IMG/VR virus record: IMGVR_UViG_3300019758_000024
Location: 1-27,171 of that record
Length of the DNA: 27,171 nt
Reading direction: 5' to 3' (one strand)
DNA from: a virus
The position numbers were made by a program, and so were the translations under genes. Shown piece after piece: positions 1,903 through 12,830 of this stretch; positions within the stretch are counted from its first letter, which is position 1, and the number at the start of each line of letters is the position of its first letter. Under the pieces are notes generated by a model, which saw only the letters and a list, made by a program, of their open reading frames with translations, was not told where the DNA came from and did not search any database.

Positions 1903-2183
1903 CAGAGCAGGACGAATTGTGGTGTGAGCTGGTGCTAAACGGTATCGGCGGCACCACCATCGAAGAGGCTCAGCGCAATCTGTCAGCGGCTGAATACTGC
2001 ACATGGGCCGAATACCGGGCGAAACGCGGGAGCCTCAACCAGATGCTTCGCACTGATAGGGGCTTTGCGCTGCTGGCCTGCCTGTACTCTGCTAGACATG
2101 GTGGCAAACCCGCGCTGTATGACTTCCTGCCGCACGAGCAGGAGCCCGAAATCACGCTCGAACAGGCGATGAAGGACTGGTAA
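1890..2183 (+). CDS. Tail assembly chaperone T-domain, made as a -1 frameshift G-T fusion
   Basis: This frame is open from the slippery site to TAA 2181-2183, giving 97 residues after the shift and a fusion of about 212 residues starting at 1546. The segment has no ATG near its beginning; the first possible start is a TTG at 1917 with no ribosome site, so independent translation is unlikely. The sequence (ELWCELVLNGIGGTTIEEAQ, then AEYRAKRGSLNQMLRTDRG) resembles gpT-like domains that link the chaperone to the tail tube. The tape measure ATG follows the stop directly. Confidence 0.8.
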   Translation, partial: AEGLTEQDELWCELVLNGIGGTTIEEAQRNLSAAEYCTWAEYRAKRGSLNQMLRTDRGFALLACLYSARHGGKPALYDFLPHEQEPEITLEQAMKDW

Positions 2184-4325
2184 ATGGCAAGTAAATCCCT
2201 CGGCACGCTGACGCTTGATCTGATTGCCCGCACGGCTGGTTTTGTGCAGGGCATGAACGAGGCTGAGCGCACGTCACGCCGCTGGCGCCAACAGGTTGCT
2301 GAGGATATCAAGGTGGTGTCCGAGGTAGCCGTAGTCGGCATGGCGGCTGCAGGCGTGGCCATCGGCGCCATGACGGCCCAGACCGTCGAAGCAGCGGACG
2401 AACTGACCCGGCTCGCCAGTATCTCGATGTCCACTACTCAGGAGCTGCAGCGGCAGGCCCAAGGCGCTGAACTATTGGGCGTTGATCTCGATACGCTGGC
2501 CAACCAGTACAAGGATTTCAACGAAAAAACGGGTGAATTCCTGCAATTTCGCTCAGGCGGGATGGTCGGATTTTTCGAGGAAATCGCACCGAAGATAGGC
2601 CTGACTGCAGAGGCATTTAAAGACCTGTCAGGCCCTCAGGCGCTGCAGCTGTACTACGACTCGCTGGAAAAAGCGGGCCTATCTCAAAAAGAGATGTCCA
2701 TCTATCTTGAGGACATGGCAAGTGATACCACAGCGCTGATCCCGCTGCTCGCAAATGGCGGTGCCGGGTTTAAGCTCATGGGTGACATGGCTGAGCGGGC
2801 TGGCGCCATCATGTCCGAGGAAACTGTTGAGGCTGCCAACCGGGCGTCCGCCACGATGCTGGTGCTGAAAACAAACGCAGAGGGGCTGCAAAACAAATTC
2901 ATGGACGGGCTGCTGCCGGCACTTGAGGACATGGCAGCCGGGATGGATTCAAGCGCCAGCTTTTCCGCCGTGGCCGCCGATGCTGGCCAGACGTTCGGCA
3001 ACGTGCTGCGCGGAATCGCGTCCGTAGCTATCGGTGCCTACGCGGCGTTTGACCTGCTCGGCAGGGCCATAGCTGCAGTCGGGGCGCGCTTTGCTGACGC
3101 GGAACTGGATTGGACCGATGCCCTAATTCCGATGAAAGGTTTCGTCAAGCTAGTGCGGTCCGAGTTGGATGACGTCCAGGGCGTAGCTGAGCAGGCTGAT
3201 GCCGACTTGGAAGCCACGGTGCTCAGATACGGCGAGCTGATAAACAAACTATGGGAGCCGGCGCAAACGAACGGCAACTCCATTGTTGATCAGATCGCAG
3301 AGCTGCAGGCCAAGGCCCGCAACGCCCAGGGTGCGCTCGAAGGCATGGCGGACGCGGCAACGCCGTCACCCGAGCAGCTCAAGCGGTTGAAGCAGCTCAA
3401 GGAGCAGCTGGCAGACCTTGAGGCCAACGTGACCTCCGGCAGCGGCGAAAACCTGCTCCCTGTGCTCGACAAAATCCGTGAGATCAAGGCCGAAATTGCC
3501 GACATCGAGTCGATGAAGCTCGTGCCGGATACCATCGACTACTCGATATCTGCATACGATAAATTCCGCGAACAGTGGGATGACTTGGTTAAGGTCCAGA
3601 ACGACTATAAGCGCCAGATGCAGGAAATTGCGGCTACCGAGCTATCGGCGATCGAGCGTAAGAAGCTGATGGCGCGGGCAGATGAGGACCGTCTACAGGC
3701 GTTGAAAGACCTGCGCTCGGCAGAGATCGAGAAACTTGGCGCAAGACTGCAGGGCGGGCAGGATACCGGGTCCGTGAACATGGACTTCATCAACCGGTCT
3801 GGCGAATTTGCGCCCGAGCGCGGACGTTCGTCGCAGGCATTCGAGGAGGCTGCTCGTAGGTTCGCAGACTCGATTGATTCCGGCATGTTGAGCCCTGAGG
3901 GGGCTGCCAGGCAGCTGTCGATGTTGGACAGCATGGCGGGTAAACTCGGCGCGCTAGGCGAGGGATTCGATGCTGAGGGGATGCGTACTGCTGTGCAGAA
4001 TCTGGCGTCCCAGACCCGAGATATGTTCGCCTCTGGCGATGGCGGAAAACCTCTTACTGCTGAGGAGATGGAGCGGGTGTTCAAAGAGGCCCAAGAAAAA
4101 GCGGCGGCGATGGAGCAGGAGCAGCGGGACTCATGGGCGTCGATCAAGCACCTGGATGAGGTCATGTCAAATGCATTCGGCGAGGACAAATCGCCGCAAG
4201 GTAAAATCACGATTGCAGTCAAAAAAGACGGTGGCGGCGGCACTACTGAAGGTGTCGTGTCCGGCGATTCGGATTTCCTTGCCTCGCTACTTTCAACGCT
4301 CGAAAATGTGAGGGCAACTGCATGA
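2184..4325 (+). CDS. Tail tape measure protein
   Basis: A 713-residue protein, the largest in the tail module, directly after the chaperone pair. The N-terminus LGTLTLDLIARTAGFVQGMN resembles tape-measure N-terminal domains. Two hydrophobic stretches (about residues 45-70, VAVVGMAAAGVAIGAM, and 275-300, RGIASVAIGAYAAFDLLGRA) could cross the host membrane during DNA ejection. Long charged helical segments (about 365-440 and 470-520) are coiled-coil-like. The length is short for this class, so a short tail is expected (roughly 0.15 nm per residue is the usual rule, giving about 100 nm). It overlaps the next gene by ATGA. Confidence 0.9.
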   Translation: MASKSLGTLTLDLIARTAGFVQGMNEAERTSRRWRQQVAEDIKVVSEVAVVGMAAAGVAIGAMTAQTVEAADELTRLASISMSTTQELQRQAQGAELLGVDLDTLANQYKDFNEKTGEFLQFRSGGMVGFFEEIAPKIGLTAEAFKDLSGPQALQLYYDSLEKAGLSQKEMSIYLEDMASDTTALIPLLANGGAGFKLMGDMAERAGAIMSEETVEAANRASATMLVLKTNAEGLQNKFMDGLLPALEDMAAGMDSSASFSAVAADAGQTFGNVLRGIASVAIGAYAAFDLLGRAIAAVGARFADAELDWTDALIPMKGFVKLVRSELDDVQGVAEQADADLEATVLRYGELINKLWEPAQTNGNSIVDQIAELQAKARNAQGALEGMADAATPSPEQLKRLKQLKEQLADLEANVTSGSGENLLPVLDKIREIKAEIADIESMKLVPDTIDYSISAYDKFREQWDDLVKVQNDYKRQMQEIAATELSAIERKKLMARADEDRLQALKDLRSAEIEKLGARLQGGQDTGSVNMDFINRSGEFAPERGRSSQAFEEAARRFADSIDSGMLSPEGAARQLSMLDSMAGKLGALGEGFDAEGMRTAVQNLASQTRDMFASGDGGKPLTAEEMERVFKEAQEKAAAMEQEQRDSWASIKHLDEVMSNAFGEDKSPQGKITIAVKKDGGGGTTEGVVSGDSDFLASLLSTLENVRATA

Positions 4326-10955: not shown

Positions 10956-10964
10956 GAATTATGC

Positions 10965-11005
10965 GGTATACCTTTTAATTACTGAAAACGGGTATACCTT
11001 TTAAT
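10965..11005. repeat. Two direct copies of GGTATACCTTTTAAT
   Basis: A 15-base repeat at 10965-10979 and 10991-11005, 26 bases apart; each begins with the perfect palindrome GGTATACC. The copies lie in the gap between the converging lysis and accessory operons, next to the box GTTAGGC (11012-11018) at the NinX stop. They could be a protein-binding pair or the remains of a duplicated end. Confidence 0.7.
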
Positions 11006-11012
11006 ACCGGTG

Positions 11013-11315
11013 TTAGGCGTCAATGGCGCCCGATTTATCTTCGCGCATCATCAGAAATACGATCATTGCGGCGCGAAGTGGGTTTGCGTCAACATGGCAT
11101 ATACCGCTTGCGAGGTTGTCACTGACAGGGTTTTCAATAAATGTAGCAACCCATTCTCCATTTATTACAGAAGGCTCAATGCCGATACTGTTTTCAACAA
11201 TAACCGGCCATGCGTCTGACGGGTTTCTGCAGTAATCCTCATTGCCTGGAGACCCAAAACGACAGACCCCAACAGCACCATTAATCTCAAAATCACTCAT
11301 TTGCTCGTAGTTCAT
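11013..11315 (-). CDS. ninX: NinX-like protein (DUF2591)
   Basis: 100 residues from ATG 11315, chosen because AGGAGAG precedes it and NYEQMSDFEINGAVG is the conserved N-terminus of NinX/DUF2591. Other family marks are CRNPSDAWPVIVENSI in the middle and NPLRAAMIVFLMM at the end. NinX occurs in the late-early region of lambdoid phages; its function is unknown. Odd feature: its stop codon TAA is embedded in GCCTAAC, and a perfectly complementary GTTAGGC lies just upstream of its start, as in integron gene cassettes. Confidence 0.85.
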   Translation of the reverse strand: MNYEQMSDFEINGAVGVCRFGSPGNEDYCRNPSDAWPVIVENSIGIEPSVINGEWVATFIENPVSDNLASGICHVDANPLRAAMIVFLMMREDKSGAIDA

Positions 11316-11327
11316 ACTCTCTCCTGC

Positions 11328-11385
11328 GCCTAACAACAAATTAAACCCGGACCCGGTGGCCGGGCCGGTTAATAGGGGGTTAACT
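11328..11385 (-). repeat. attC-like hairpin site 1 (between coiled-coil gene and ninX)
   Basis: On the plus strand GCCTAAC (11328-11334) and GTTAACT (11379-11385) bound a 58-bp site. The interior folds as 5+4+5 base pairs (ATTAA, CC-GG, CCCGG against CCGGG, CCGG, TTAAT) with a TGG loop. Three unpaired bases, including A11345 and A11351, all lie on one arm. Read in gene direction, the coiled-coil gene's stop TAA is inside AGTTAAC, and the far box is GTTAGGC, a perfect GTTRRRY. This is the architecture of an integron attC site. No covariance model was run. Confidence 0.5.
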
Positions 11386-11583
11386 GGCTTCCAGATCAGC
11401 AAGTTGTTTTTCCAAATCGGCCAGTTCTTCCTTTGCTATATCCAAGTCCGCCTTCCTGCTTTCCACCTCATACTCGGCCTGTTCGATTTCTTCCCGCAGT
11501 CGCGCCTTTTCTTGCTCGGCTTCCATCATGTCTTCGAATGCGTCGTCCATGTCTTCTTCGGTTTCAAAAACTTGAATCCCCAT
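11380..11583 (-). CDS. Short acidic coiled-coil protein
   Basis: 67 residues from ATG 11583 (GGAG about nine bases upstream). After MGIQVFETEEDMDDAFEDMM almost the whole protein is a charged helix with heptad-like leucine and alanine spacing (EKARLREEIEQAEYEVE, then ADLEKQLADLEAS), so it is probably a dimeric coiled coil. No family was recognised. It is bracketed exactly by the two attC-like sites, and would form a 280-bp cassette (11334-11613). Confidence 0.7.
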   Translation of the reverse strand: MGIQVFETEEDMDDAFEDMMEAEQEKARLREEIEQAEYEVESRKADLDIAKEELADLEKQLADLEAS

Positions 11584-11607
11584 TTTGATCGCTCCGTGGT
11601 TGCAGCC

Positions 11608-11667
11608 AGTTAACAACTCGCACCACTCGGACCCGAATACTCGGGCCGGTGTGCTTCGGGGTTACTT
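11608..11667 (-). repeat. attC-like hairpin site 2 (between 264-aa gene and coiled-coil gene)
   Basis: A 60-bp site bounded on the plus strand by AGTTAAC (11608-11614) and GTTACTT (11661-11667). The left arm 11621-11636 pairs over 13 bp with 11641-11653 if three bases on that arm (C11624, T11627, A11631) stay unpaired; the loop is ATAC. It shares CGGACCCG and CGGGCCGG with site 1, with the unpaired A at the same place. The stop TAA of the upstream gene lies inside the end box. The GTTACTT box is a poor match to GTTRRRY. Confidence 0.5.
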
Positions 11668-12456
11668 TGACTCCTGTTTGCGGTATCCGGCGCGGTAGAG
11701 GGCTCGGCATGTATCCTCGGGAGTTAAGTGCTCGTCCGTTGCTGCAACCATCTCCTCAACCGCCCTGTCTTCTTCGGAGCAATCGGGGCGGATACCGCTC
11801 ATATATGACCAGATTAGCCGACTCTCGTGATCCCCGATCAGTGACACGGCAATCGTGTTTGCTTCACTAGGGTGATAACCAACAACATGCGCTTTATGCC
11901 AGCAACGTCTTCCGTCATCAAACCACGCTTCAAGCACTGCCCCAGCCGGCGGCAACCCATCCTCAGGGCCGCGCCATTCGGCCGGCGATTCGCAATTTGT
12001 ATAGGCAAGTGATTTTTCCACGTCAAATCCTCCGATCTCTCTCATTTTCTCTAATGCCTGATTTACGCTCATAGGCCGCCGCTCCAGCGTGTTGCGCCAG
12101 TCGCCTAGGACTTTTCCGTGCGTAAATGATGGGTATATTTTCATTGCGTCATAATACTTTGCGCCTGATTCTTTAAACCCATTAAAATCAACCAAGAAAG
12201 CCCATTGGCCTCTTGGATTTTGAATAAGATGCGTCGCATCCTCCGGCGCATCATTCCACCCCGGCTTCCCGCTCAGCTCATCACGGGCGGCTTTCCACTG
12301 AGCGCGGGTGAAGCATATCTCACCGACTCCCGTGTATTCCTCAAGGCGCGATCCATGTAGAAAGTCATATGATCCACAATCATCTTTTTGGATTGCGCAG
12401 CATCCGTCTTCCCACTCATGCACATTCTCAGCCAACCACTTAAGATCTTCGTTCAT
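11662..12456 (-). CDS. Phage accessory protein of unknown function, 264 aa
   Basis: Starts at ATG 12456, which overlaps the upstream stop as TGATG; a GTG one codon earlier is possible. Visible segments are an N-terminal MNEDLKWLAENVHEWEDG motif, a WNDAPEDATHLIQNPRGQW block of a kind seen in assorted phage early proteins, a second block (RGPEDGLPPAGAVLEAWF, then KAHVVGYHPSEA), and a C-terminal short helix (ALYRAGYRK). It looks like a mosaic of two or three small phage domains. No enzymatic motif was seen. The 3' end runs into attC-like site 2. Confidence 0.7.
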   Translation of the reverse strand: MNEDLKWLAENVHEWEDGCCAIQKDDCGSYDFLHGSRLEEYTGVGEICFTRAQWKAARDELSGKPGWNDAPEDATHLIQNPRGQWAFLVDFNGFKESGAKYYDAMKIYPSFTHGKVLGDWRNTLERRPMSVNQALEKMREIGGFDVEKSLAYTNCESPAEWRGPEDGLPPAGAVLEAWFDDGRRCWHKAHVVGYHPSEANTIAVSLIGDHESRLIWSYMSGIRPDCSEEDRAVEEMVAATDEHLTPEDTCRALYRAGYRKQESK

Positions 12457-12830
12457 CACACCACCGCCTTTTTAACTTTGTTTTTGTCCATACCCGGCAT
12501 ATCCCATATCGGGCTGTCATCGCCACGGCTGCCGACAAACGGGATTGTTTCCAGGCATTCGATAAACGTGTCATCCGGCAGATCTCGGAACCGGCTGACG
12601 ATAATAAAATACTGCGGGTCACCGGTTCGGACGGATTGCTTATTCAGCTCCGATTGCAGTACACGTTTGACCGCTTTCGTGCGGTATGCGATGCGCGCAT
12701 TATGCTGTGACTCGCGGGCCGCACGGCTAGTGCAATACCGGTTCAGCTCCGGCTGATTCAGCATTTCGAGCCCGGCAATTGTCATTGCGTTTGTGACCGT
12801 TGCCACGGCCAGATTTGTTGCGTTCGACAT
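12456..12830 (-). CDS. Hypothetical phage protein, 124 aa
   Basis: Starts at ATG 12830 with AGAGG about 10 bases upstream. The N-terminal half is helical and alanine-rich (AVATVTNAMTIAGLEML), followed by a basic helix (ARIAYRTKAVKRVLQSELNK). The C-terminal half includes IIVSRFRDLPDDTFIECLET. No family was recognised. Its first codons (SNATN) lie in a 13-base sequence that is repeated 33 bases away in the leader. Confidence 0.6.
   Translation of the reverse strand: MSNATNLAVATVTNAMTIAGLEMLNQPELNRYCTSRAARESQHNARIAYRTKAVKRVLQSELNKQSVRTGDPQYFIIVSRFRDLPDDTFIECLETIPFVGSRGDDSPIWDMPGMDKNKVKKAVV

What the first reader, a model, noticed from the sequence alone, without database searches (positions are those of the whole stretch)
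11012..11667. Integron-like gene cassettes inside a phage accessory region
Two sites (11328-11385 and 11608-11667) show attC architecture: GTTRRRY/RYYYAAC-like end boxes, a hairpin with three unpaired bases all on the same arm, a short loop, and the upstream gene's stop codon inside the end box. Integron cassettes carry the same box at both ends: a box at the 5' end (after recombination at G/TT) and its complement at the 3' end. Read on the minus strand, the coiled-coil cassette begins GTTAACT and ends AGTTAAC. The NinX cassette begins GTTAGGC and ends GCCTAAC. Both are exact complements, which chance hairpins would not give. Cassettes with attC sites are known from chromosomal and mobile integrons; a small array in the early region of a phage would be a striking case of cassette capture.
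Basis: partly seen in the sequence, partly recalled or inferred. Interest (0 to 1): 0.88.

Follow-up and report, generated by a model that had tools for sequence, protein, structure and literature searches.

The report
Antisense integron cassettes in a phage
Two small genes of this environmental phage lie in integron-style cassettes, each with its own recombination hairpin, and they belong to a large, apparently undescribed group of phage cassettes whose genes run opposite to the normal direction and often help phages evade bacterial defences.

Summary
Both hairpins are the two best attC matches in the contig: 22.3 and 21.4 bits, E 0.0012 and 0.0021, next best 9.6, using a covariance model built only from bacterial attC sites. 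The strict architecture occurs exactly twice in the window, and not at all in 471 kb of other phage loci or 60 shuffles. Both cassettes obey the integron box rule 7/7.

One correction: the attC top strand is the + strand, so NinX and the coiled-coil gene run antisense to their cassettes, each stop codon being the TTA of G|TTA. In bacterial integrons genes run in the attC direction: 58 Pfam families on the sense strand, 0 on the antisense.

In those viral arrays the rule is reversed: antisense ORFs match 23 and 18 Pfam families, sense ORFs one each. Cargo includes DNA methylases, Mom, Tad3, Acb2/Tad1 and Lar. Identical cassettes with exact ends sit in unrelated contigs.

Phage CALINs are known (Qi 2023). 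I found no report of this reversed class. The window's sites are weak members; function is untested.

The parts
11012..11018 (+). Left core box GTTAGGC, start of cassette 1 (exchange expected between G11012 and T11013); no attC or attI to its left
   Evidence: exact complement of R'' of attC1
11013..11379 (+). Cassette 1 (367 bp), gene antisense
   Evidence: bounded by G|TTAGGC and the G of the attC1 R' box
11013..11315 (-). NinX-like gene, 100 aa; stop TAA = TTA of the left box; ATG 13 nt from attC1 R''
   Evidence: Pfam PF10765 E 4.9e-13; phrog_444 E 1.4e-28; gap
11328..11385 (+). attC1: R'' GCCTAAC 11328-11334, stem 11340-11373 with extrahelical A11343, C11346, A11351, R' GTTAACT 11379-11385
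   Evidence: 22.3 bits, E 0.0012, + strand only; fold; core AACCCGGAC...GCCGGTTAAT as in a Methylobacter attC (L162:3132-3194)
11380..11661 (+). Cassette 2 (282 bp), gene antisense
   Evidence: bounded by G|TTAACT and the G of the attC2 R' box
11380..11583 (-). Small coiled-coil-like gene, 67 aa from the ATG after GGAGCG; no relative found; stop TAA = TTA of the box
11608..11667 (+). attC2: R'' AGTTAAC 11608-11614, stem 11620-11654 with extrahelical C11624, T11627, A11631, R' GTTACTT 11661-11667
   Evidence: 21.4 bits, E 0.0021; fold z -3.4, 0 of 200 shuffles as stable
11662..12459 (-). Flanking phage gene (265 aa); its stop TAA (TTA 11662-11664) lies just right of the exchange point, so an insertion there leaves it intact
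   Evidence: distant relatives in Aeromonas phages, phrog_3483

Best explanation
The region is a two-cassette CALIN (attC cluster without an integrase) in a siphovirus-like phage. Each cassette is one small gene plus one attC site, with the gene on the attC bottom strand. Likely route: a host integron integrase acting in trans inserted two cassettes in a row at a double-stranded G|TT site abutting the stop codon of the 265-aa gene, in the direction that made their genes co-directional with the phage operon. Shown: the attC structure, box rule, polarity, and membership in a widespread class of phage arrays with antisense cargo, some of which have gained and lost whole cassettes at G|TT. Inferred: the insertion event here, the integrase in trans, present-day mobility, and any benefit of NinX or the coiled-coil protein. 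Suggested reason for the polarity (inference): it puts the recombinogenic attC bottom strand on the coding strand, hence on the lagging-strand template when genes are co-directional with replication. That layout raises excision when a Vibrio array is inverted (PMC11023631).
For: attC detection, nulls; controls: TJE1 and Vibrio phage sites, 131 chromosomal-integron and plasmid sites; 0 hits in 273 kb of NinX phage loci; box rule; 86 vs 87 and 69 vs 70, 94 vs 95 (opposite polarity of bacterial and viral cargo); 105 (window geometry matches the class: stop directly after G in 106 of 327 antisense ORFs, median start gap 13 nt; NinX gap 13); 78, 85 (annotated complete phage MW202573 with antisense cassettes); 97, 100, 102 (precise cassette sharing and gain/loss); 71, 98 (phage genes flank such arrays).
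Against: The window's sites score below the listed sites of other arrays (22 bits against about 27-69) and have unusual 3' boxes; a box-weighted detector missed them. No integrase lies in the contig and no empty-site relative is held. Cassette 1 lacks a left attC. NinX and the coiled-coil gene have no known defence or counter-defence role.
Confidence: 0.83

Rival explanations
1. Relic attC sites: the cassettes arrived by integrase action long ago, the boxes have drifted and the unit is now fixed phage sequence.
For: Non-consensus R' boxes, G instead of C before GTT, low scores.
Against: Box complementarity is still exact in both cassettes and the stems have no mismatch. An R' box outside the last cassette is expected to be target sequence, so GTTACTT need not be decay.
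Confidence: 0.35
2. Ordinary hairpins, such as transcription terminators or chance palindromes between genes.
For: Both lie in intergenic gaps; site 1 folds only slightly better than shuffles (z about -1).
Against: No run of T follows. The two share the CGGAC...GCCGGT core seen in bacterial attC sites, all bulges are on one arm, cassette ends are exact complements, and both shuffles and other phages lack the pattern.
Confidence: 0.04
3. One reading: normal sense cassettes read on the minus strand.
For: On the minus strand each unit reads box, ribosome-binding site, ATG, gene, stop inside the next box, as in textbook cassettes.
Against: The model matches + only; bulges sit on the 5' arm of +, as on the aadA top strand; the + core matches the array strand of chromosomal attC sites. 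The same mismatch of gene and attC direction is the rule in viral arrays.
Confidence: 0.05

Closest known systems
Phage CALINs of Qi et al. 2023 (PMC9892861): TJE1, PH101, P12002L, MW202573
   Same: attC arrays without an integrase inside phage genomes; DNA methyltransferases among the cargo; some sites recombine with attI1 through IntI1
   Different: TJE1 and PH101 cassettes are reported in the usual direction. The passages read do not mention an antisense class; in MW202573 the attC sites lie opposite to the CDSs, which I did not find stated there
Sedentary chromosomal integrons of Beta- and Gammaproteobacteria (for example Methylobacter L162)
   Same: attC core and extrahelical layout, box rule, single-gene cassettes
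   Different: integrase in cis, genes on the attC top strand, different cargo
Class 1 integron cassettes (aadA attC)
   Same: nearly the same stem plan and box spacing
   Different: sense genes, resistance cargo, consensus boxes
attG insertions (Loot et al. 2024, cited in PMC12901181)
   Same: cassette insertion at non-attI genomic sites would explain the bare left box and the odd last R' box
   Different: not shown here; no empty site available

Membership tests
Integron gene cassette with attC | imperfect hairpin with extrahelical bases on one arm between R''/R' boxes | tested here: met
Integron gene cassette with attC | match to an attC covariance model | tested here: met
   22.3 and 21.4 bits, E 0.0012 and 0.0021 with own model R1; IntegronFinder's model not available
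Integron gene cassette with attC | consensus boxes RYYYAAC and GTTRRRY | tested here: inconclusive
   AAC and GTT kept; GCCTAAC fits; AGTTAAC, GTTAACT and GTTACTT deviate
Integron gene cassette with attC | first box of the cassette complementary to R'' of its own attC | tested here: met
   7/7 in both cassettes; 71 of 86 in chromosomal arrays
Integron gene cassette with attC | gene on the attC top strand, as in bacterial integrons | tested here: not met
   genes on -, attC top on +
Complete integron | intI gene and attI site in cis | tested here: not met
   no TIGR02249 match in the 27 kb contig, which may be a fragment
CALIN | at least two clustered attC sites without an integrase | tested here: met
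CALIN | recombination by an integron integrase | not testable with these tools
   needs an attC x attI assay
Antisense phage cassette class (defined here) | gene on the attC bottom strand, stop = TTA of G|TTA, start a few nt from R'' | tested here: met
   both window genes; compare
Antisense phage cassette class (defined here) | modification or counter-defence cargo | tested here: inconclusive
   NinX and coiled-coil gene have no known such role
Antisense phage cassette class (defined here) | precise gain or loss of whole cassettes | not testable with these tools
   no close relative of this phage held; shown for other arrays

The most novel reading that the evidence does not exclude
Environmental phages share their own pool of gene cassettes, separate from the bacterial integron pool, in which the genes lie antisense to their attC sites. 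Host integron integrases move these cassettes precisely between phages, and they supply DNA-modification and counter-defence genes on demand. The window carries a small, diverged array of this kind.
Probability: 0.6. Interest if true: 0.93.

Novelty: new variant of a known kind. Interest (0 to 1): 0.84.

Why it matters
It would mean that the integron system serves phages as a cassette exchange for evading bacterial defences, the mirror image of chromosomal integrons as stores of defence genes. Cassettes with reversed genes would not be expressed from an integron's usual promoter, so the two pools would be kept apart, and their different gene polarity implies a different way of making cassettes. 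How cassettes arise is a long-standing question.

Tried and rejected
Rfam had no match. Relatives of the coiled-coil gene, of the 10571-10945 gene and of the exact hairpin core were not found in viral contigs; the helicase gave one 49% relative, so no empty site could be compared. NinX relatives are many, but their loci lack attC. The genome search with the model found nothing even in the window itself, so its empty result is uninformative. A box-weighted detector missed the window's sites and listed two other spots there; on phage loci without attC it gave 22 hits in 471 kb at its lower threshold, so it was used only at a higher threshold for arrays. Longest-ORF direction alone overcalls sense ORFs in GC-rich DNA (60 of 221 and 66 of 265 decided cases), so polarity rests on Pfam matches and on the MW202573 annotation. 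The 8 reversed ORFs in chromosomal arrays look spurious. A blast of 15 viral attC sites against annotated phages found only P1, an AB571791 record and MW202573: the class is nearly absent from cultured phages.

Full report
What the window is. The window is a whole 27,171-base IMG/VR contig, classed as a linear virus record and possibly a fragment. It has tail genes on the left, an endolysin, and a minus-strand block from NinX to a helicase. No close relative is in the viral or phage collections.

The sites. On the + strand, site 1 reads GCCTAAC-5 nt-hairpin-5 nt-GTTAACT and site 2 AGTTAAC-5 nt-hairpin-6 nt-GTTACTT. Each hairpin has 14 pairs, no mismatch and three unpaired bases, all on the 5' arm. 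An aadA attC scored by the same method has 15 pairs and two unpaired bases on the 5' arm. Both window sites carry the CGG-A-C...GCCGGT core with an extrahelical A, typical of beta- and gammaproteobacterial attC sites; site 1 shares AACCCGGAC...GCCGGTTAAT with a Methylobacter attC.

Significance. Model R1 was built from 25 attC sites of class 1 and chromosomal integrons, none from the window. In the window, with filters off, it finds the two sites at 22.3 and 21.4 bits and then only noise at 9.6. It finds attC sites of phage TJE1 (35.5, 32.8 bits), a phage in which attC sites have been shown to work, and eight sites of a Vibrio phage integron. It finds 131 sites in integron loci, those next to a chromosomal intI all on the array strand, and none at E <= 5 in 273 kb of NinX phage loci. 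An architecture-only filter gives 2 hits in the window, 0 in 471 kb and 0 in 60 shuffles. E-values are rough, but two adjacent same-strand sites with exact cassette ends leave little room for chance.

Cassettes. With + as the top strand, cassette 1 is 11013-11379 and cassette 2 is 11380-11661. Each starts with the complement of its own R'' box, 7 of 7, as 71 of 86 chromosomal cassettes do. Removing both joins ACCGGTG to TTACTTTGA and leaves the stop codon of the 265-aa gene intact. The bare left box and the odd last R' box are what insertion of two cassettes at a non-attI G|TT site would give; this is inference.

Polarity. NinX and the coiled-coil gene lie on the - strand, antisense to attC. 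In bacterial integrons the longest sense ORFs of cassettes match 58 Pfam families and the longest antisense ORFs match none. The window is reversed.

A class. Of adjacent cassettes obeying the box rule, the longest ORF is antisense in 161 of 221 and 199 of 265. Homology is cleaner. Set 1: antisense 23 Pfam families (N6_N4 methylase in 10 proteins, Mom, Tad3 Thoeris inhibitor, Lar, PAPS reductase, MazG and others), sense one. Set 2: antisense 18 (methylases, Mom, Dam, RNA ligase, RtcB, Acb2/Tad1 hairpin at a weak 0.0005), sense one. The most frequent position of the antisense stop is directly after the G of the box (106 of 327) and the median start-to-R'' gap is 13 nt; both window genes have that stop position and NinX has a 13-nt gap.

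Are they phages? Proteins flanking the arrays match PHROGs for helicase, primase, RecE, RecT, terminase, DNA ejection and tail fibre. The annotated complete P22-like genome MW202573 has its attC sites on - and its CDSs up to 4707 on +. IntI lies near only 3 of 119 set-1 stretches, and some IMG/VR contigs may be bacterial. TJE1 and Vibrio phage arrays are not of this class.

Mobility. A 328-nt cassette is 100% identical end to end in L245 and L359, with unrelated flanks on both sides. L325 and L386 share an outer flank 99.9% identical over 3.6 kb and an identical right flank, yet one has a 757-bp cassette and the other a 451-bp cassette at different places, between shared cassettes of 99.5-100% identity. 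Whole cassettes come and go at G|TT. The coding strand of these L325/L386 cassettes was not resolved. None of this could be tested for the window's own phage.

Prior art. Qi et al. 2023 found phage CALINs, showed IntI1 activity on five of six phage attC sites and noted methyltransferases. Searches of the held literature found nothing on antisense phage cassettes, but preprints and most subscription papers are not held.

Limits. The window's attC sites are divergent, with atypical R' boxes, and could be relics. Function of NinX and of the coiled-coil protein is unknown. The integrase in trans and the reason for the polarity are hypotheses.

Noticed in passing
L169-L287 and L295-L399 (IMG/VR): Hundreds of attC sites in viral contigs, with genes antisense to attC and cargo rich in DNA methylases, Mom and defence inhibitors.
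   Followed up: yes
L293 (MW202573) 2069-3738: Complete P22-like phage genome whose attC sites (-) oppose its annotated genes (+); listed as a CALIN by Qi 2023, polarity not mentioned in the passages read.
   Followed up: yes
L297, L325, L386: Related contigs with the same flanks but different cassette content; exact whole-cassette gain and loss.
   Followed up: yes
L320 630-1958: Five attC matches spaced exactly 316 bp apart, apparently a tandemly repeated cassette.
   Followed up: no
L198, L217, L272: IMG/VR contigs with an intact-looking integron integrase near attC sites; viral integrons or bacterial contigs.
   Followed up: no
window 10962-11004: Two direct copies of GGTATACCTTTTAAT, each with a GGTATACC palindrome, between the 10571-10945 gene and the left box.
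   Followed up: no
window 11379-11389 and 11604-11614: The complementary ends of cassette 2 extend to 11 nt (GTTAACTGGCT), longer than the 7-nt box.
   Followed up: partly
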